DNA of 40,473 nt, from positions 1 to 40,473 of the forward strand of contig CANQLT010000012.1 of the NCBI GenBank assembly GCA_947624775.1. The letters are read 5' to 3'. A program made the translations under genes and the position numbers. Positions 31,921 through 40,473 of this stretch are shown here, piece after piece. Under the pieces are notes generated by a model. The model saw only the letters and a list, made by a program, of their open reading frames with translations, was not told the DNA's origin and did not search any database. The number at the start of each line of letters is the position of its first letter. Within the stretch, counting starts at the first letter, position 1. Source of the stretch: an uncultured Monoglobus sp. (GTDB lineage: Bacteria > Bacillota > Clostridia > Monoglobales > Monoglobaceae).

Positions 31921-31951
31921 GGCTCCCCATCCCAAAAAGGGATAGGGAGCC
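31921..31951. terminator. Terminator of the WG-repeat gene (bidirectional shape)
   Basis: Arms GGCTCCCCATCCC and GGGATAGGGAGCC with loop AAAAA and A/T tracts on both sides, 12 bases past the stop at 31963. Confidence 0.88.
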
Positions 31952-31962
31952 TTTTGTTTATA

Positions 31963-34107
31963 TCAATTGAAGAAGTAAGCCTCTGTGCCGAACGTGGTGG
32001 AGACTGTGTCGTCGCCGCCGAAAGAAATAACGTTGGCGTCGCCGAAGGCTTCCGGGTCATACTGATAATATCTGCCCTCGTCGTTATAGCATTTGAGGAC
32101 CGCGAAGGTCGCGCGGCGCGGGACCGGCTCGCAGGCGCTGTGGCTTTCGTTTACATATCCGTATCCGCCGAAAGCGTCATCGCCGTATCTGTAACGCTCT
32201 TCCGTCCCGGAAAAATTGATCGCTTTAAGCAGGATCTCGTATTCCTCACTATAGTCTATGACCCCGTCAGGGTCAAAGTTCCCATTGTCGTTTCCGCTTA
32301 TTAAACCGCGGTTCTTTGCCTCGTATATGACGCCGTTGGCCCAATGTCCCTCGGTGTCGGGGAATGCGGCGGGGGCGCCGTCGTCTATCTGCCAGCCGTC
32401 TATCCTTGAAAGCAGCGCCAAAAACTCGGCGCGGGTGGTGGGCTCGTCCGTCCTGAGTTCCTCGGGAGTTTTGCCCGTGACGTAGTTATTGTCAACGAAC
32501 CACTGCGCGAAATCGTCGAGCGTCGGCTCGCCGACGTACGGTGAAATGTCTATCGGACGCGGATCGTCAGCGAGCTTCGCGCTATAGTACCGCGGTTCGC
32601 TTCCGCCCGTAATAAGCCTCAGAACGCCGTCGGACTCAAGGCGTATATCGTCGAAGATCGGGGGCAGAAGCCAGTCGCCGCTCTCGTTCATCAGGCCGAC
32701 GCAATAATCCATATCGCTGCAGCTTACGCCGCCCACCGTGTAGTAAAGGGTTTCTCCGACCTTAATAATGTTCGGGTAAACATCGCCTTTAAAGCCGCCG
32801 ATCTCCTTCACGGAACCGTCGTCAAGCAGGAAGTATGTCTTGCAGTCCTTTTGGCCTATCGGGTACTCGGCGTAGTCAAACTGAGGCTCATACACGATAT
32901 TTCCCCGGCGGTCGGCAAAACCGATCTTGCCGTTTTGGGAAATTTTTATCAGGCTGTCGGCAGGGCCGAAACCGCCCTGCGCGTCATAACCGCTCAAAAC
33001 AAGGTTTCCGTCCGCGCCGAAATAATAAGCGCGTGCAATGCCGTTTTCATCGCGCTGCCGATCTATGACGCGGATAAGCGTGGGCAGGTCTTTTGAATAT
33101 CTCATCGGAAGCTCCGATCCGTAAAAATAGTACGTGTCATAGGCCTTCATTAAGATCGGGTCGATGTATTTATCACCGTCGCTCAGAACCGTGCGTCCGC
33201 TGTTATCGCAGATCTCGAATGACTGCTCGATCTCGCCGTTTTCTTTGACGGTATCGCTGCTGAACACAAACAAGCCGTCGGCGTAATCCGAAATATCGGA
33301 CGCCTCTTTTTCAAACAGCTTTTCGCCGCTTTCGGAATATATCTCGATATACCCGTCGTCGCGGGTCACGGAAAAGTATTTTCCATCAATAACCGAAGGC
33401 TCATACTCCGAGAGAGGCATTATCTCGCGGCCCGTTTTGTCAATCACCGTGTAGCCGTAGTCGCGGCCGACAACGATGTAATCTCCCGCCGCACAGCTCT
33501 GGGCGTAGTCGTATACGGGTTTTACTATCTCGGTACCGGAAAGGTCGGCGAATCCTATCTTGTCGTCGTCTGTCATAAAGCGGATCTTGTCGTAGTCGAT
33601 CACGACCTCCTTATAGTCGCAAGGCATGATCAGACTGCCGCTTAAAATATCCAAGCAGCCCCATTTGCCGCCATTCTTGACCGCGACGATCGGCTTGCTT
33701 GCGAGGGCTTCGACCTTCTCGGCGTCGTCCTCGCCCAAAATATACATGAATCTGTCAAACGACGTGGTTTCGCGGAAGCTGACCGAGTTGTATTTTCGGG
33801 TGAGCTCGATCTCGCTGGCCGAGAACGAGTTTACGCTTCGGCCCCCGAAGTAGTTTCTTCCGAAGTTTACGTCGTCCCATACAGGCTCGGCGACAACATC
33901 ACTTCCGTATTTGACGCCGTACTTGCCGTTTTCCGCCAAATACGGAGAGTAATCGATATATACGTTCTCGTCGCGCTGAACGATATCGGTCAGATTGGGC
34001 AGGTTCGATACGTCAAATGCGGTATCTTCGGCGTAAGCCGCGGGCATAGCCGTCAGCATCGCCGCCGCGGCCACCGCCGCGATCGTTTGTTTTAATTTGT
34101 TTTTCAT
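31963..34107 (-). CDS. Secreted WG-repeat protein with SLH-type C-terminal domain
   Basis: A 714-residue exported protein. Signal peptide MKNKLKQTIAAVAAAAMLTA with cleavage near AYA-ED. The middle is a series of WG (KWG/KIGF) repeats: NGKYGVKYGSDVVAEPVWDDV, NGGKWGCLDILSGSLIMPCDY, DKIGFADLSGTEIVKPVYDYA, NGKIGFADRRGNIVYEPQFDYA and VGLMNESGDWLLPPIFDDI (each about 20-25 residues). Near the C-terminus, TTRAEFLALLSRIDGW, FPDTEGHWANGVIYEAKNRG and GNDNGNFDPDGVI form an S-layer-homology-like region that may anchor it to the wall. ATG at 34107 has AAAGGA nine bases upstream; the ATG at 34116 is too close. It follows the small secreted protein by 16 bases. Confidence 0.88.
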   Translation of the reverse strand: MKNKLKQTIAAVAAAAMLTAMPAAYAEDTAFDVSNLPNLTDIVQRDENVYIDYSPYLAENGKYGVKYGSDVVAEPVWDDVNFGRNYFGGRSVNSFSASEIELTRKYNSVSFRETTSFDRFMYILGEDDAEKVEALASKPIVAVKNGGKWGCLDILSGSLIMPCDYKEVVIDYDKIRFMTDDDKIGFADLSGTEIVKPVYDYAQSCAAGDYIVVGRDYGYTVIDKTGREIMPLSEYEPSVIDGKYFSVTRDDGYIEIYSESGEKLFEKEASDISDYADGLFVFSSDTVKENGEIEQSFEICDNSGRTVLSDGDKYIDPILMKAYDTYYFYGSELPMRYSKDLPTLIRVIDRQRDENGIARAYYFGADGNLVLSGYDAQGGFGPADSLIKISQNGKIGFADRRGNIVYEPQFDYAEYPIGQKDCKTYFLLDDGSVKEIGGFKGDVYPNIIKVGETLYYTVGGVSCSDMDYCVGLMNESGDWLLPPIFDDIRLESDGVLRLITGGSEPRYYSAKLADDPRPIDISPYVGEPTLDDFAQWFVDNNYVTGKTPEELRTDEPTTRAEFLALLSRIDGWQIDDGAPAAFPDTEGHWANGVIYEAKNRGLISGNDNGNFDPDGVIDYSEEYEILLKAINFSGTEERYRYGDDAFGGYGYVNESHSACEPVPRRATFAVLKCYNDEGRYYQYDPEAFGDANVISFGGDDTVSTTFGTEAYFFN

Positions 34108-34125
34108 AATAATCATCCTTTCGTT
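34028..34125 (-). repeat. Copy 1 of a 98-base duplicated gene start
   Basis: Matches 34461-34558 at 95 of 98 positions with no gap. It covers the ribosome site, start codon and whole signal peptide of the WG-repeat gene. Confidence 0.95.
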
Positions 34126-34540
34126 AGTAACAAAGCGCCTTGCCGTTTGATGTTGAGGTTAGGGTAATCAGATAGCTCTCGCCGGGGGACAGGCCGTGGA
34201 TCGAGTATTCGGTGAACGTCCTGGGTTTGGCGTATATCGTCCCGATATTCTCGCGCGTGGACGCGGGGCATATCCCGATCTTTATCATGTCGGATGTGTC
34301 GGACGTGAAATACAGCGAAATTCTGCCGTTTTCGTCAGCCGTTTTGCCCAGCGAGGTCTCGCCGTTTGTCAAAGCGGCGGTTTGCGCCTCGGGGTGCGCG
34401 TTTGTCATATAAGTCCAGTTTGTGCCGGGTTTCAGGCGGTTCGCCGAAATTCCGGCGCCGTCGGCGTAAGCCGCGGGCATTGCCGCCAGCATCGCCGCCG
34501 CGGCCATCGCCGCGATCGTTTGTTTTAATTTGTTTTTCAT
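34124..34540 (-). CDS. Small secreted protein with the BlaR1-like receptor's ectodomain
   Basis: A 138-residue exported protein: signal peptide MKNKLKQTIAAMAAAAMLAA (cleavage near AYA-DG), then one domain of about 110 residues. That domain aligns along its length with the last 106 residues of the BlaR1-like protein encoded upstream: shared NRL-x-PGT, GET, SDM, KPRTF-xx-Y, GLS and the terminal KAL-x-Y. No known family is recognised. The ATG at 34540 has AAAGGA nine bases before it. The gene is co-directional with blaR1, about 360 bases away, and 16 bases before the WG-repeat gene. A secreted free copy of a receptor ectodomain suggests a ligand-binding or competing role; inference only. Confidence 0.8.
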   Translation of the reverse strand: MKNKLKQTIAAMAAAAMLAAMPAAYADGAGISANRLKPGTNWTYMTNAHPEAQTAALTNGETSLGKTADENGRISLYFTSDTSDMIKIGICPASTRENIGTIYAKPRTFTEYSIHGLSPGESYLITLTSTSNGKALCY

Positions 34541-34558
34541 AATAATCATCCTTTCGTT
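34461..34558 (-). repeat. Copy 2 of the 98-base duplicated gene start
   Basis: Start region and signal peptide of the small secreted protein; three mismatches to 34028-34125. Confidence 0.95.
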
Positions 34559-34597
34559 TTGTGATTTGGGTTTGCAAAAAATGTTGCCTCATGTCAG

Positions 34598-34815
34598 CCT
34601 CGCCCTCCGAGGAGGGAGAGGTGGCTGTGGCCGGAGCCGCGCAGCGGGTTCGAGGCACTATCGTATTCCGCGCGCACAAATAAACGATGCCACAAATCAT
34701 TAACGTGAGCGGACATGAGCCGCAGGCGACGGAGAGGGAGGCAAACCAATACTTTGAAATTACTCCCTCTCAGTCTGCTTCGCAGACAGCTCTCCCCCTT
34801 AAAAGGAGGCGAGCC
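34598..34815. repeat. Intergenic GC-rich palindromic repeat cluster
   Basis: The 358-base gap 34541-34898 has no gene. It holds small hairpins: CCCTCC-ga-GGAGGG (34603-34616), GTCTGC-ttc-GCAGAC (34773-34787), and a wider inverted pair AGAGGGAG (about 34733-34740) with CTCCCTCT (34762-34769). The style is that of dispersed intergenic repeats in gut Clostridia; whether it recurs elsewhere cannot be seen here. Confidence 0.5.
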
Positions 34816-34898
34816 AAACTTGGAGCGTGGGGATATGCGAAGGTTTTACGCCGAATTATTCCCGCGTATTCGCTATTCGCTAATTCCTAATCCCTACG

Positions 34899-36560
34899 TT
34901 AGTAGATCAGCGCCTTGGTCGGGGCGGCGGCGGTGATCTCGAGGCGGCAGATGTCGCTCAGCCCCGACACCGTGTAGGAGGCGAATGTCCTGGGTTTTAG
35001 AAACAGCCTTCCGAGCGCGGTCCCGCCCTCGCTCACTTCAACGGTCACCATATCGGAGCTTTCGGAGCTCAGATAAACGCTGACCTCGCCGCTTGTCGGC
35101 TCCTTTTCGGCGGCCCGCGTTTCACCCGAGTTGACAAAAATCTCATCGGGCGTCTTTCCGTCCGCTTCCGCCTCGGCTCTGACGTCGTCGTAATCCGTGC
35201 CGGGCATCAGTCGGTTCGACTTGACCGAAACATTCGCGCCGTCGCCTCTTGAATACAGAACCGTTTCCGTTTCACTCCCGTTGTTTGTCGCCGAATCGGG
35301 CTGCGGCGCGCTGTTTCCGTCGTTTGAGGAATATATCCCCGCGTCTCTGATTATGACCGTTGACGGGGTTTGCGCGGATATATTCGAATCACTATCAGGC
35401 ACGGTTTTGCCGCGGTCATCGAAAGCGGCGGCGTCAGTCCGCGAAACTTCGGCCGCGGTGTTTCCCTCTGATTTAGCGGAGTTTTCAAGGCCGATATCTT
35501 CCGTGGGACGCGCGTCCGCAATGTCGGCGGAGCCGTTCGCTTTTTTGGAGCTCGGGCTGAATCGGTGCTCAGACACTATCGATTGATACAGCTCGCTGCT
35601 CTCGGGTCGGATCGGCTCGGGAAGCTTGGCGTTTGTCAGGCAGGTGCAGCCGATAAGGATAACAGCCGCCGAGCAAAGAACTCTGCATATCACCGCGGGC
35701 TTTTTGAACGCGGCCACGCTTTTGATCCTGCTCTTTATGCCGCGCTTTTCGCCCGACATACCAACCGCCGCGGAAGCGAATGTCGAAAATTTCGCGGCTG
35801 TGTTTATGATCGTCATTCCGTATCCTATTCGCTCGTCGTTTTTCATATAGCCCATCGCTTTGGCGTCGGCCGCCATTTCCATTTCCTGCCGAGCCTTATG
35901 CTCAAACAGATACACGAGCGGATCGAACCAGTACACAGCCCGCACGATCGAAAGCAGATATCCCGACAAAATGTCTCGCCGCTTCACATGACAGCACTCG
36001 TGGAGAATTATATGGCGCAGCTCCTCGAGCGGCATCTCGGCGGCGTCTTTGCCGAGCAGCAGTTTCGGCCGAAAATAGCCGAATACCGCGGGAGTCTCGA
36101 TCTCGCTCTGCATGATCGGAACGATCTTTTTCTTTATCCTCAGCCTTTTCGCGCAGGCGCTCAGCTCGGCTTCAAAAATCGGGTCGTCGTATTTTTTAAG
36201 CCGTGATATCCCGCGGCGCATCACGGACCGCGCTATGATCCCGCGGAGGATCAGCAGAGCCGCGACCGTCAGCCATATTATTCCGAGTATTAAAAGCATG
36301 TCGGTTCCGCCCGAAAGCGGTATTGACTTGACTGCCGAAACGCTCTCGGCCCGACGCGGCAGCAGGTTGAACAAGCTGAACCTTGTTTCGGGCGCAAGCG
36401 GAACCAAGAATCTGACCGCGGCGATGAGCCACAGGGCGAATCGGAAACCCGCCGGGACCTGCTTTTTGAGCAGCAGATTCAAGAGATACACGATCACGCC
36501 GAGTATGGTGCCGTAGAGCGCGGCGGTCAGGCAGAAGCTGAACAACAGTTTTACAGCCAT
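34899..36560 (-). CDS. BlaR1/MecR1-like M56 metallopeptidase receptor with a non-PBP ectodomain
   Basis: Membrane sensor-protease of 553 residues. Three hydrophobic segments (about 5-31, 41-57, 86-110) precede a cytoplasmic zinc protease loop with H187-E-C-C-H191 and the downstream EMEMAADAKAMGY supplying the third ligand. A further membrane segment lies at about 285-305 (VICRVLCSAAVILIGCTCL). In classical BlaR1 a penicillin-binding domain follows; here there is instead a Ser/Asp/Glu-rich linker (about 310-447) and a roughly 106-residue C-terminal domain shared with the small secreted protein downstream. No SxxK/SxN/KTG penicillin-binding set is seen. It follows blaI by 12 bases with a strong AAGGAGG site. 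By family, signal binding outside would trigger cleavage of the BlaI-type repressor. Confidence 0.9.
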   Translation of the reverse strand: MAVKLLFSFCLTAALYGTILGVIVYLLNLLLKKQVPAGFRFALWLIAAVRFLVPLAPETRFSLFNLLPRRAESVSAVKSIPLSGGTDMLLILGIIWLTVAALLILRGIIARSVMRRGISRLKKYDDPIFEAELSACAKRLRIKKKIVPIMQSEIETPAVFGYFRPKLLLGKDAAEMPLEELRHIILHECCHVKRRDILSGYLLSIVRAVYWFDPLVYLFEHKARQEMEMAADAKAMGYMKNDERIGYGMTIINTAAKFSTFASAAVGMSGEKRGIKSRIKSVAAFKKPAVICRVLCSAAVILIGCTCLTNAKLPEPIRPESSELYQSIVSEHRFSPSSKKANGSADIADARPTEDIGLENSAKSEGNTAAEVSRTDAAAFDDRGKTVPDSDSNISAQTPSTVIIRDAGIYSSNDGNSAPQPDSATNNGSETETVLYSRGDGANVSVKSNRLMPGTDYDDVRAEAEADGKTPDEIFVNSGETRAAEKEPTSGEVSVYLSSESSDMVTVEVSEGGTALGRLFLKPRTFASYTVSGLSDICRLEITAAAPTKALIY

Positions 36561-36572
36561 AGTTCCTCCTTT

Positions 36573-36959
36573 TTAGCCGTCGTTTGATTTGAGCATGTTT
36601 TTAAGCTCCTCGATGTCGTCTTTGGTAAGGTCGTTCTTTTGGATAAATCCGGCCATCATCCTGTTGACCGAACCGCCAAACATTCGCTTTACGAAAGACT
36701 CCGCCTCGTGATACTTGTACTCATCCTCTCCGACGGCCGCGGTGTAGATATTGGAATGAAGATTGATCTTCTCGGCCGTGATCGCGCCCTTGGCGTTCAG
36801 ACGCTTGATCAAGGTGTGAATGGTTTTGGGCTTCCACTCGCTGACCTTCGACACCTCGGCAACGATCTCGGCGCTCGTCATTGAGCCGTTTCTCCACAGC
36901 ACATTCATGACCTCGAGCTCAGAGGCCGAAATCTGCGGAATTTTTTCGGGGGTTTTCAT
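36573..36959 (-). CDS. BlaI/MecI family transcriptional repressor
   Basis: A 128-residue winged-helix repressor: PQISASELEVMNVLWRNGSMTSAEIV (ISASELEVMNVLW is the family N-terminal motif), then SEWKPKTIHTLIKRLNAKGAI (recognition helix region) and a dimerisation tail with FIQKNDLTKDDIEELKNML. The ATG at 36959 is nine bases after AGGAGG; the longer frame runs through the operator and promoter and is rejected. It is paired with the M56 receptor and probably represses its own operon through the palindrome upstream. Confidence 0.93.
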   Translation of the reverse strand: MKTPEKIPQISASELEVMNVLWRNGSMTSAEIVAEVSKVSEWKPKTIHTLIKRLNAKGAITAEKINLHSNIYTAAVGEDEYKYHEAESFVKRMFGGSVNRMMAGFIQKNDLTKDDIEELKNMLKSNDG

Positions 36960-37008: not shown

Positions 37009-37037
37009 ATCTTACACCTGTACGAGGGATTTGTCAA
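37009..37037 (-). promoter_or_regulatory. Sigma-A promoter of the blaI-blaR1-like operon
   Basis: TTGACA (complement of 37032-37037), 17-base spacer, TAAGAT (complement of 37009-37014). Confidence 0.8.
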
Positions 37038-37719: not shown

Positions 37720-39387
37720 ATGGCATTATGGTATGACTCAAAAAAGCGCGAATACGCCTCGGACGGCAAAAACGGCTGGTTCAAAAAATACTGCGATACG
37801 CTCGTGGCTGACCTTAACGAATTATTTGAGGCGCACTTTAAGGGTCTTTCAAACCGCCACAACGCGCGCGACGTGGACTATGACGAAAATATGACCGTCA
37901 GAGACAAGCTGGACGATATCGACAGCGATATAAGCGAAGCGGTGGAAGACCTGCAAAACAAGATCACTGCTGAGGCCTCGGAGCGAAAAATCGAGGACGC
38001 AAAGCTCGGCGTCAGAATCGACGCGGAGGCTGTGGCGAGACAAAAGGGCGATAAGGACATGATGGATGCCCTTCGCAGTGAATCCGAAGATCTGAACAAC
38101 CGAATTGATGAGGAGGCGCTCGACAGAAGGAACGCTGACACAGCTCTCGGACAAAGAATAGACGCGGAGGTCGAGGAGCTTAAGGAAAAGCTTAGAGGAA
38201 CGATGCCGGATCCGATTTACGTCAATGAAACCGAGCTTGATGACACATTTGAGCCCGGCTTTTACAGAAGCCTCATTAATAAACTCAAACCCGACTTCGG
38301 AGATGTGGACACGAATTGGACAGTGGCCGTGAGCAACAGCTCATATACCAACGATATAGGGGACACTTACTACACAATCACACAGGCCGCGATAGGCGAC
38401 GATGGGACGATCAAGGCTTACAGGAACGCATGTGCGCAATGCGAGAACGCGTCACAGGTTTTGAATTTCCAAGACTTTGGCAAATGGACGCTCATTACAT
38501 TAGACATCGCCGATATAGAAGGACTTCATGAGAAATTGACAGAGATTGGCAACAAAGCCAATCGCAAGGGCAGCTGGACAAATCCGTTTGTTGTGAGTGA
38601 CCCGAAAACCGATCTATCAACTTTGACAACTCCCGGAATATACTATTTTGATTTTGACGATGTTGTTTTTGCGATAACGGAGCCTCACGATTTCGGCTGC
38701 TACACCAAAGGTTATATGCAGGTCGCCGGACTTTGGAATGATCAAAATTCCGAAAATGTTGTCGGCCAAATACTTTATGTTAGCGATGAAGGTCAATTTT
38801 TTTCATGCACAAGAGAGGTCGGCTCAAACGGCATCGCTCAAAACTGGAGAATATCGGCGTGGGTGACAGACATAAACAATCCCGATCTTGAGAGGCGTGT
38901 AAAGGCCCTCGAAAACGCTGAAGGTACATGGGCTAAACCGTATGTCGTTTCGCATTCGGAAACACGCTTGTCAACTTTGAAAAGCCCCGGCGTATATCAT
39001 TTTGAGTTTAGCGGTTCCGCTGAACTTAAAGGCCGCGGATTCTACCAAGGAGGCTATATGGAAGTAGCGCCTGTTTGGGGAGATAACGTCAAGCATTTGA
39101 TTTGGTTCCAAAAAATATATACCGGCTATGAAGGCGCGGTATATACATACACACGCACAATACAGGGAGAGGGTGTGGAAGATAACGATTTCGGCTGGAG
39201 ACTGGTTGAAACATCGTCAGCTAATGCGTATGCCGCAAGCAAAGAAGATCAATATTTGCCGTCTTTGGAAAAACGTGTTGCCGCCCTCGAAAACACAATT
39301 AAGTCTCTGACCGGAGGAAGCGATACCGGAATAACAACGGCAACTGACACTGAGGCCGATGCTGTGCTTGATAAATATTTTTCATAA
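37720..39387 (+). CDS. Coiled-coil protein with internal repeats, tail-fibre- or spore-surface-like
   Basis: A 555-residue protein with no signal peptide or membrane segment. N-terminal domain (1-55, MALWYDSKKREYASDGKNGW), then a long coiled coil (about 58-158) built from repeated units such as AEASERKIEDAKLGVRIDAE and DEEALDRRNADTALGQRIDAE. Next come two related modules starting at residues 284 (GSWTNPFVVSDPKTDLSTL) and 402 (GTWAKPYVVSHSETRLSTL), each with a following PG-[IV]-Y-[YH]-F motif and a GY-MxVA strand; a weaker third begins near 163 (PIYVNETELDDTFEPGFY). A second coiled coil closes the protein (LEKRVAALENTI). AAAGGAG precedes ATG. The collagen-like gene follows after 12 bases, so both probably assemble together. 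Phage tail fibre is the main alternative to a spore-surface protein. Confidence 0.75.
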   Translation: MALWYDSKKREYASDGKNGWFKKYCDTLVADLNELFEAHFKGLSNRHNARDVDYDENMTVRDKLDDIDSDISEAVEDLQNKITAEASERKIEDAKLGVRIDAEAVARQKGDKDMMDALRSESEDLNNRIDEEALDRRNADTALGQRIDAEVEELKEKLRGTMPDPIYVNETELDDTFEPGFYRSLINKLKPDFGDVDTNWTVAVSNSSYTNDIGDTYYTITQAAIGDDGTIKAYRNACAQCENASQVLNFQDFGKWTLITLDIADIEGLHEKLTEIGNKANRKGSWTNPFVVSDPKTDLSTLTTPGIYYFDFDDVVFAITEPHDFGCYTKGYMQVAGLWNDQNSENVVGQILYVSDEGQFFSCTREVGSNGIAQNWRISAWVTDINNPDLERRVKALENAEGTWAKPYVVSHSETRLSTLKSPGVYHFEFSGSAELKGRGFYQGGYMEVAPVWGDNVKHLIWFQKIYTGYEGAVYTYTRTIQGEGVEDNDFGWRLVETSSANAYAASKEDQYLPSLEKRVAALENTIKSLTGGSDTGITTATDTEADAVLDKYFS

Positions 39388-39399
39388 CGGAGGATCAAA

Positions 39400-40473
39400 A
39401 TGGCAGATATTTCTAAAGCTTTAAAACTTATTACGCTGGATCTGTACGAAAAACTGTCAAGCAGAATATCCGACAGAATTAAAAATATCGAACTCATGCC
39501 CGGTCCCAAAGGCGATGCCGGCCCTCAAGGTCCTGTCGGAGCTACGGGCGCAAAGGGAAATACCGGGGACCGAGGCCCGCAGGGATATACTTTTACCCCT
39601 AAGGTAGACGCAAGCGGTAATCTTTCTTGGACAAATAACGGAGAATTGGATAATCCCGCGACTGTGAACATCAAGGGGCCACAAGGCGAGAGAGGCCCAC
39701 AAGGACTTCAAGGTGTGACAGGTCCGCAGGGGTCGGTCGGAACGACAGGCGCGGCGGGCGCAAAAGGAGACACCGGCGCGGCTGCGGGATTCGGGACCGT
39801 TACCGCTAAAATGGGAAATACATTAACAGGTACTCCGACAGTCAGCGTCTCAACGTCGGGCAGCGATACCGCAAAAAACTTTGAATTTACGTTTACGAAC
39901 CTTAAGGGCGCCACGGGTGCGCAAGGTGCAACAGGACCGCAGGGAGCTACGGGCGCAAAGGGAAATACCGGGGACCGAGGCCCGCAGGGATATACTTTTA
40001 CCCCTAAGGTAGACGCAAGCGGCAATTTGTCTTGGACAAACAACGGAGGACTGAGCAATCCTTCGACCGTAAACATAAAGGGCCCAACCGGAGCGCAAGG
40101 TCCGGCAGGTCCGCAAGGCCCGACCGGTCCTACAGGTCCGCAGGGTCCCGCCGGCAGCAACGCTACCGTGACTGTTGATTCTTTGCTTAACGCAAGCTCC
40201 TCGAATCCTGTACAGAACAAGGTTATAAACGCAGAACTTGACAACAAGCTACCGCGTTCGGGTGCAGCTATAGACGGTAACTTTAGGTTAAACGCTTCCA
40301 ACGGCTCGATAGCATTGGAATCAGAAAAAACTATTAATATTACTTCTAATGGCGGCGAGATTATTCTCAACTCGGATCAAGGTATACGGGGTAATCATTC
40401 CGGCAAAAAAATAGTCCGCGCCGCCGCCACACTGGTAGTCGGCACAACAGAATCGGGGCACACATATTCCGAC
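39400..40473 (+). CDS. Collagen-like repeat protein, tail-fibre-like (truncated by window end)
   Basis: Starts at ATG 39400 after CGGAGG and stays open to the end of the window (358 residues seen). A short helical N-terminus (MADISKALKLITLDLYEKLS) is followed by three or more Gly-X-Y stretches beginning at G35 (GPKGDAGPQGPVGATGAKG). They alternate with a short module GYTFTPKVDASGNLSWTNNG that occurs twice. After the last collagen stretch comes TVDSLLNASSSNPVQNKVIN, a pattern common in Firmicute phage tail fibres and their relatives. No signal peptide, as in phage fibres and in mother-cell-made BclA-type spore proteins. It likely trimerises through the Gly-X-Y parts. Confidence 0.85.
   Translation, partial: MADISKALKLITLDLYEKLSSRISDRIKNIELMPGPKGDAGPQGPVGATGAKGNTGDRGPQGYTFTPKVDASGNLSWTNNGELDNPATVNIKGPQGERGPQGLQGVTGPQGSVGTTGAAGAKGDTGAAAGFGTVTAKMGNTLTGTPTVSVSTSGSDTAKNFEFTFTNLKGATGAQGATGPQGATGAKGNTGDRGPQGYTFTPKVDASGNLSWTNNGGLSNPSTVNIKGPTGAQGPAGPQGPTGPTGPQGPAGSNATVTVDSLLNASSSNPVQNKVINAELDNKLPRSGAAIDGNFRLNASNGSIALESEKTINITSNGGEIILNSDQGIRGNHSGKKIVRAAATLVVGTTESGHTYSD
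39541..39617 (+). repeat. 77-base exact direct repeat, copy 1
   Basis: Identical to 39946-40022; encodes part of a collagen stretch plus the GYTFTPKVDAS module. High nucleotide identity implies recent duplication or gene conversion. Confidence 0.95.
39946..40022 (+). repeat. 77-base exact direct repeat, copy 2
   Basis: Identical to 39541-39617, 405 bases downstream and in the same frame. Confidence 0.95.

What the first reader, a model, noticed from the sequence alone, without database searches (positions are those of the whole stretch)
34124..36560. BlaR1-like receptor whose sensor domain is replaced by a small domain also made as a free secreted protein
The M56 protease receptor (HECCH) has no penicillin-binding domain. 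Its last ~106 residues align with the whole mature part of a secreted 138-residue protein encoded just downstream (NRL-x-PGT, GET, SDM, KPRTF-xx-Y, GLS, KAL-x-Y shared in order). A membrane receptor and a soluble copy of its ectodomain in one locus suggest a decoy, co-receptor or homotypic ligand, and a signal other than beta-lactams.
Basis: partly seen in the sequence, partly recalled or inferred. Interest (0 to 1): 0.8.

Follow-up and report, generated by a model that had tools for sequence, protein, structure and literature searches.

The report
Receptor with a secreted sensor-domain copy
A gut bacterium carries a BlaR1-type signalling protease whose outer, antibiotic-sensing part is replaced by a small unnamed domain, and the same operon also makes that domain as a free secreted protein, probably as a soluble modulator of an envelope-sensing switch.

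Summary
The last 114 residues of an M56/BlaR1-type receptor (34899-36560, minus strand) are homologous to the whole mature part of the secreted protein encoded next to it (34124-34549): BLASTP E 6e-16, profile E below 1e-30. It is not a PBP fragment. AlphaFold2 gives a confident small beta-sandwich (pLDDT 91.7), nearest to GOLD-type folds, with no Pfam family. The genome is a Monoglobus relative. Receptor and free copy co-occur in 7 of 7 Monoglobus genomes that have this receptor type (adjacent in 6; contigs break in the 7th). The free copy is under purifying selection and is sister to the receptor's own domain: an old duplication. Promoter, BlaI-type operator and terminator suggest one BlaI-autoregulated operon: BlaI, receptor, free domain, WG-repeat/SLH protein. 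Elsewhere in the class the domain is the C-terminal end of M56 receptors, followed by an SLH surface-protein gene (19/19 outside the genus; about 9 of 22 tail-less receptors), and was never seen free. So the ancestral signal is probably an envelope cue, and the free copy a Monoglobus-specific add-on: a co-induced soluble competitor or partner of the receptor. Binding is untested; decoy, homotypic ligand and surface effector remain open.

The parts
37009..37037 (-). sigma-70-type promoter TTGACA-17-TAAGAT of the operon
   Evidence: 10 of 12 consensus positions; same element upstream of BlaI in the other Monoglobus A-type loci
37013..37022 (.). BlaI-type operator dyad TACAGGTGTA between -35 and -10
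   Evidence: only TACANNTGTA in the 40 kb window (0.15 expected); exact or with one mismatch at the same place in the A-type operons of the genus
36573..36959 (-). BlaI/MecI-family repressor (likely ATG at 36959 behind AGGAGG; the listed TTG start at 37037 lies in the promoter)
   Evidence: PF03965 E 7.7e-32; start from reading the sequence
34899..36560 (-). M56/BlaR1-type membrane receptor protease, 553 aa
   Evidence: PF05569 E 2.2e-50; model matches S. aureus BlaR1 cryo-EM, Foldseek E 1.3e-9
35718..36536 (-). M56 transmembrane/gluzincin part with HECCH (residues 187-191), E228, D232, R278
   Evidence: these residues invariant in 26 receptors; Pfam stretch
35268..35624 (-). disordered extracellular linker, residues about 313-431
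   Evidence: pLDDT under 50 for 314-398 and 405-430; dN/dS 0.32-0.44 between close genomes
34902..35243 (-). C-terminal ectodomain of the receptor (residues 440-553), homologous to the free protein
   Evidence: same strand order in the receptor model
34556..34895 (.). high-copy interspersed repeat between receptor and free gene
   Evidence: 60 matches in the own genome; only 16 nt between the two genes in G006
34124..34549 (-). free secreted copy of the ectodomain, 141 aa; signal peptide about residues 1-29
   Evidence: dN/dS 0.08-0.25 between close genomes
31963..34116 (-). secreted WG-repeat protein with one SLH domain (SLH at 32245-32364)
   Evidence: PF14903 2.2e-11, PF00395 7.4e-11; its start region is 92% identical to that of the free gene over 111 nt
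31921..31951 (-). terminator-like hairpin at the end of the operon
   Evidence: 13-bp stem and T tract

Best explanation
The four minus-strand genes form one BlaI-autoregulated operon that monitors the cell envelope. The M56 receptor spans the membrane, holds a small beta-sandwich on a long disordered stalk outside the cell, and, when that domain is occupied, cleaves the BlaI repressor as S. aureus BlaR1 does, releasing the operon. The free protein is a soluble paralogue of that sensor domain, duplicated long ago from the receptor's own tail and put behind a signal peptide. Because it is co-transcribed with the receptor it rises when the operon is on, and most likely binds the same extracellular cue (an envelope glycan, or a surface or SLH protein) in competition with the receptor, giving feedback. 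Shown by sequence: homology, predicted fold, operon signals, conservation, co-occurrence. Inferred from BlaR1: protease activity and BlaI cleavage. Inferred only: identity of the cue, and competition rather than cooperation.
For: Homology and fold. Catalytic residues invariant in 26 receptors and BlaR1 fold. BlaI next door with an operator on the promoter, one strong terminator at the end, no other TACANNTGTA in the window. Free copy found in 7 of 7 genomes with this receptor type and in none without. Purifying selection on the free copy, dN/dS 0.08-0.25. Tree: free copies are one clade (94/92), sister to the neighbouring receptors' tails (99/97), not to the paralogous receptors. Envelope link: the next gene encodes an SLH protein in 19 of 19 tail-bearing loci outside the genus, against about 9 of 22 tail-less M56 loci (a conservative 9 of 20 gives Fisher p 1.5e-4); some receptors carry LCP or M23 cell-wall domains between protease and tail.
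Against: No binding, expression or phenotype data. Two genomes of the genus (G002, G005) and the other genera run the tail receptor without a free copy. The six named relatives with the system are metagenome assemblies. A buffer protein of unknown abundance need not affect signalling. A 340-nt repeat lies between receptor and free gene in this genome, so continuous transcription is an inference from promoter and terminator scans.
Confidence: 0.38

Rival explanations
1. Homotypic ligand or co-receptor: the free domain docks directly on the receptor's ectodomain and switches the protease on or off, reporting its own concentration or secretion state.
For: The free copy is derived from the partner receptor's own domain and never separated from that receptor type. 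One receptor in another genus carries two tail domains in tandem (L047), and split receptors encode two ectodomain subunits side by side, so paired ectodomains recur. The closest folds include GOLD and endospore-appendage domains, some of which self-assemble (general knowledge).
Against: Most tail receptors have no free partner. Fold similarity is middling (Z 9 and 7) and shows no function. Seven genomes are too few to test co-evolution.
Confidence: 0.27
2. Output, not regulator: the free domain is a surface or wall-binding effector that acts with the WG/SLH protein encoded next, and the receptor uses a cousin of it as its probe, as RsgI anti-sigma factors carry carbohydrate-binding modules like those of the enzymes they control.
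For: Free gene and WG/SLH gene share signal peptide and ribosome-binding region (111 nt, 92%) and lie 7 nt apart; SLH genes follow the receptor throughout the class. The RsgI module precedent rests on general knowledge; abstracts of PMC4711584 and PMC12203970 describe SigI/RsgI as substrate-sensing.
Against: No wall-binding motif found in the free protein; the shared signal peptide may only reflect gene origin.
Confidence: 0.25
3. Relic of a duplication without function, or an assembly artefact.
For: A repeat sits beside the gene, and the receptor tail has diverged far from the free copy.
Against: Intact in seven genomes, dN/dS 0.08-0.25, 42 invariant positions among seven diverged copies.
Confidence: 0.04

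Closest known systems
Staphylococcus aureus BlaR1/BlaI (PMC9834060)
   Same: BlaI repressor, M56 gluzincin receptor with a similar membrane part and catalytic residues, C-terminal sensor outside; operator on the promoter
   Different: The PBP-type sensor is replaced by a 114-residue beta-sandwich on a disordered stalk; a free secreted copy of the sensor and an SLH protein are in the operon; no beta-lactamase or PBP gene in the operon
Mycobacterium tuberculosis BlaR1 homologue (noted in PMC9834060)
   Same: M56 receptor without the penicillin sensor
   Different: Described as lacking an equivalent sensor domain; here a different conserved domain takes its place
Clostridium thermocellum BlaI_1845 operon (PMC8457756)
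   Same: Self-regulated operon of BlaI, BlaR1 and two hypothetical proteins
   Different: That paper assumes a beta-lactam response; no free sensor copy is described, and its receptor was not compared here
RsgI/SigI biomass sensors of C. thermocellum (PMC4711584)
   Same: Works alike: ectodomain related to a secreted module, proteolytic signalling across the membrane
   Different: Unrelated proteins (anti-sigma factor, not M56/BlaI)
GOLD-domain and endospore-appendage (Ena) beta-sandwich folds
   Same: Overall arrangement of strands (VIA-align Z 9.0 to ACBD3 GOLD, 7.0 to the Bacillus endospore appendage subunit 7a02)
   Different: 6-10% sequence identity, no Pfam match at the curated cut-off

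Membership tests
BlaR1/MecR1 beta-lactam receptors | M56 membrane metalloprotease with HExxH and downstream Glu | tested here: met
   PF05569 E 2.2e-50; H187, E188, H191, E228 invariant in 26 receptors; structural match to BlaR1
BlaR1/MecR1 beta-lactam receptors | C-terminal penicillin-binding (PBP-fold) sensor | tested here: not met
   No PBP family match in Pfam or NCBIfam; ectodomain modelled as a 113-residue beta-sandwich
BlaR1/MecR1 beta-lactam receptors | adjacent BlaI/MecI repressor and operator | tested here: met
   PF03965 E 7.7e-32; TACAGGTGTA on the promoter; binding itself not tested
BlaR1/MecR1 beta-lactam receptors | cleavage of BlaI on induction | not testable with these tools
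   needs protein biochemistry
Fibronectin type III domains | Pfam fn3 above the curated cut-off | tested here: not met
   free protein 13.7 bits against a cut-off of 25; best member E 0.0012; mainly the Y-x-GL-P-x-x-Y stretch aligns with PDB fn3 chains
GOLD domains | shared fold by structural comparison | tested here: inconclusive
   best VIA-align hits, Z 9.0, rmsd 3.0, 103 aligned, but middling Z is common
Endospore appendage (Ena) subunits | Pfam Enas/DUF3992 match and jelly-roll fold | tested here: inconclusive
   Z 7.0 to 7a02; Enas at best E 0.021 in 3 of 27 members, not significant

The most novel reading that the evidence does not exclude
A BlaR1-type receptor is controlled in trans by a secreted duplicate of its own sensor domain (homotypic ligand or decoy), a soluble modulator of an M56/BlaI system, and the domain defines an unrecognised class of M56 receptors that watch the SLH-decorated cell envelope instead of beta-lactams.
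Probability: 0.4. Interest if true: 0.75.

Novelty: new variant of a known kind. Interest (0 to 1): 0.55.

Why it matters
M56/BlaR1-like receptors occurred in 18 of 19 gut-type Clostridia genomes searched here (the list was chosen partly for carrying them), and what those without a penicillin sensor perceive is not described in the papers read here. This work gives one such group a defined ectodomain, a strict genomic partner (an SLH surface protein), and a natural soluble copy of the sensor that can be purified and used as a probe to fish out the ligand. It also warns against annotating these genes as beta-lactam resistance regulators.

Tried and rejected
PBP-fragment reading: rejected. Plain fn3 domain: the PDB profile hits (E 7.5e-6) cover mainly the loop motif, and curated Pfam cut-offs are missed. 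Endospore-appendage subunit: only weak signals, kept as a fold resemblance. Phylum-wide search outside the class: 2 weak hits in long ORFs, judged chance. The idea that the free copy is the family's basic ligand: rejected because most receptors lack it. The idea that SLH coupling is unique to tail receptors: rejected, since some tail-less M56 genes have it too, though less often. A recent origin of the free copy from the window's receptor: rejected by the tree. Ongoing gene conversion between the two signal peptides within each genome: not supported, since copies between close genomes are more alike than the two genes within one. Literature: no paper found on this ectodomain.

Full report
Observation. 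The receptor (34899-36560, minus) and the secreted protein (34124-34549, minus) are real ORFs. BLASTP aligns free residues 30-141 with receptor residues 440-553 at 32% identity, E 6e-16. In a search of the whole genome the free protein finds its own gene, a second receptor on contig C8 and the window receptor (E 4e-15 and 1.4e-12). Profile scores are far stronger. The resemblance is not chance and does not vanish in profile comparison.

Identity of the parts. The receptor matches Peptidase_M56 (2.2e-50) and nothing else in Pfam; the first gene of the operon is a BlaI-type repressor (7.7e-32), and the gene downstream of the free copy encodes a secreted WG-repeat protein with one SLH domain. NCBIfam's BlaR1 model matches only the protease part. 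AlphaFold2 on 26 receptors gives BlaR1-like transmembrane helices and protease, a disordered stalk at about 314-430 and an ordered tail; Foldseek's first six hits are S. aureus BlaR1, E down to 1.3e-9. H187, E188, H191, E228, D232 and R278 are invariant, so the protease is likely active.

The domain. A 27-row alignment gives a confident model of the free protein (pLDDT 91.7, pTM 0.84): nine strands and one helix. The receptor tail has the same order of elements. The last residue of the chain is Tyr in all 27 rows of alignment A1, free or receptor-borne; in the wider set A3 a few end otherwise. No Pfam family passes its cut-off. Structural second look: GOLD domains Z 9.0, endospore appendage subunit Z 7.0, which shows a common type of beta-sandwich and no function.

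Operon. A 10/12 promoter TTGACA-17-TAAGAT at 37037-37009 carries TACAGGTGTA, the only such dyad in the window. The A-type operons of the genus have the same promoter with zero or one mismatch in the dyad. A strong terminator-like hairpin follows the WG/SLH gene at 31951-31921. A high-copy repeat (60 matches in this genome) lies between receptor and free gene; in G006 only 16 nt separate them. One BlaI-autoregulated transcript is the simplest reading, not shown.

Distribution. Named relatives are mostly uncultured Monoglobus MAGs of the isolate series 'Lapin' (the name suggests rabbit gut). Of 12 genomes of the genus, seven have the window-type receptor and all seven have the free copy; adjacency is direct in six, and in G004 both genes lie at contig ends. 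Eight genomes have a paralogous operon (BlaI, receptor with the tail, WG protein) without a free copy. The single-contig genome G009 has neither. In a sample of 391 genomes of the class 26 have a match; outside Monoglobus the M56 loci checked carry it at the receptor's C-terminus, and a wider phylum sample shows only two weak hits. Weak hits on long non-M56 proteins (L092, L094) look like general beta-sandwich similarity.

Neighbours. In 19 of 19 tail-bearing loci outside the genus the next gene encodes an SLH protein (Pfam). As a control I took tail-less M56 genes from the same genomes: about 9 of 22 have one nearby downstream by a home-made SLH profile. The two groups were scored with different profiles, so the difference (Fisher p 1.5e-4 on a conservative 9 of 20) is indicative. 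Some tail receptors carry LCP, or M23 plus Cu-amine-oxidase-N domains, between protease and tail, again pointing to the cell wall.

Evolution. Free copies form one clade (94/92), sister to the tails of the neighbouring receptors (99/97), with the receptor tails on the longer branch (1.09 against 0.52; long branches call for caution). Between close genomes dN/dS is 0.08-0.25 for the free copy, 0.13-0.27 for the receptor tail, 0.32-0.44 for the stalk. The free copy therefore most likely arose once in Monoglobus, before these species split, and is kept by selection.

Mechanism. Established knowledge of BlaR1 (PMC9834060): the receptor cleaves BlaI directly, and autocleavage in the loop 271-289 is spontaneous. 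By analogy the M56 protein here senses with its tail and relieves BlaI. Since the tail works in receptors that have no free partner, the ancestral cue is something else, most likely in the envelope. The free copy shares the tail's ancestry and is probably co-transcribed, so competition for that cue (feedback decoy) is the first guess at 0.38, direct docking on the tail 0.27, surface effector 0.25. None is shown.

A side finding bears on this. In several genomes the M56 protein is split: the protease ends near residue 280 and one or two separate membrane proteins carry the last helix and an ectodomain (L078, L134, L137, L147, L148). Aligned to BlaR1 the break falls near residue 270, at the edge of the autocleavage loop. 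In L078 one such separate subunit carries the tail domain. Ectodomains encoded apart from the protease thus occur elsewhere in the class.

Noticed in passing
L078, L134, L137, L147, L148 (M56 loci of other Clostridia): Split BlaR1-type receptors: the protease gene stops at about residue 280, near the position of BlaR1's autocleavage loop, and one or two tandem genes encode the last transmembrane helix plus ectodomain. The two products of BlaR1 autocleavage seem to be encoded separately.
   Followed up: partly
L047:1564-4497 and L083:1535-3808; L081:4984-7545: M56 receptors with an extracellular LytR-CpsA-Psr domain, or with Cu-amine-oxidase-N plus M23 peptidase, inserted between protease and tail domain.
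   Followed up: partly
34556-34895: Intergenic stretch made of a high-copy interspersed repeat (60 matches in this genome).
   Followed up: partly
34448-34558 and 34015-34125: Start regions of the free-domain gene and the WG/SLH gene (ribosome-binding site and signal peptide) are 92% identical over 111 nt, so one gene probably borrowed its signal peptide from the other.
   Followed up: partly
L043:2274-6343 (contig C8): Paralogous operon BlaI, receptor with the tail, WG protein, but no free copy; in eight Monoglobus genomes.
   Followed up: partly
37720-40473: Coiled-coil protein followed by a collagen-like G-x-y repeat protein running off the window, on the plus strand; looks like phage tail or surface fibre genes.
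   Followed up: no
window 31963-34116 and L043:4346-6343: The WG proteins end in an aromatic C-terminus (YFFN or YYFF) in most of the genomes read.
   Followed up: no
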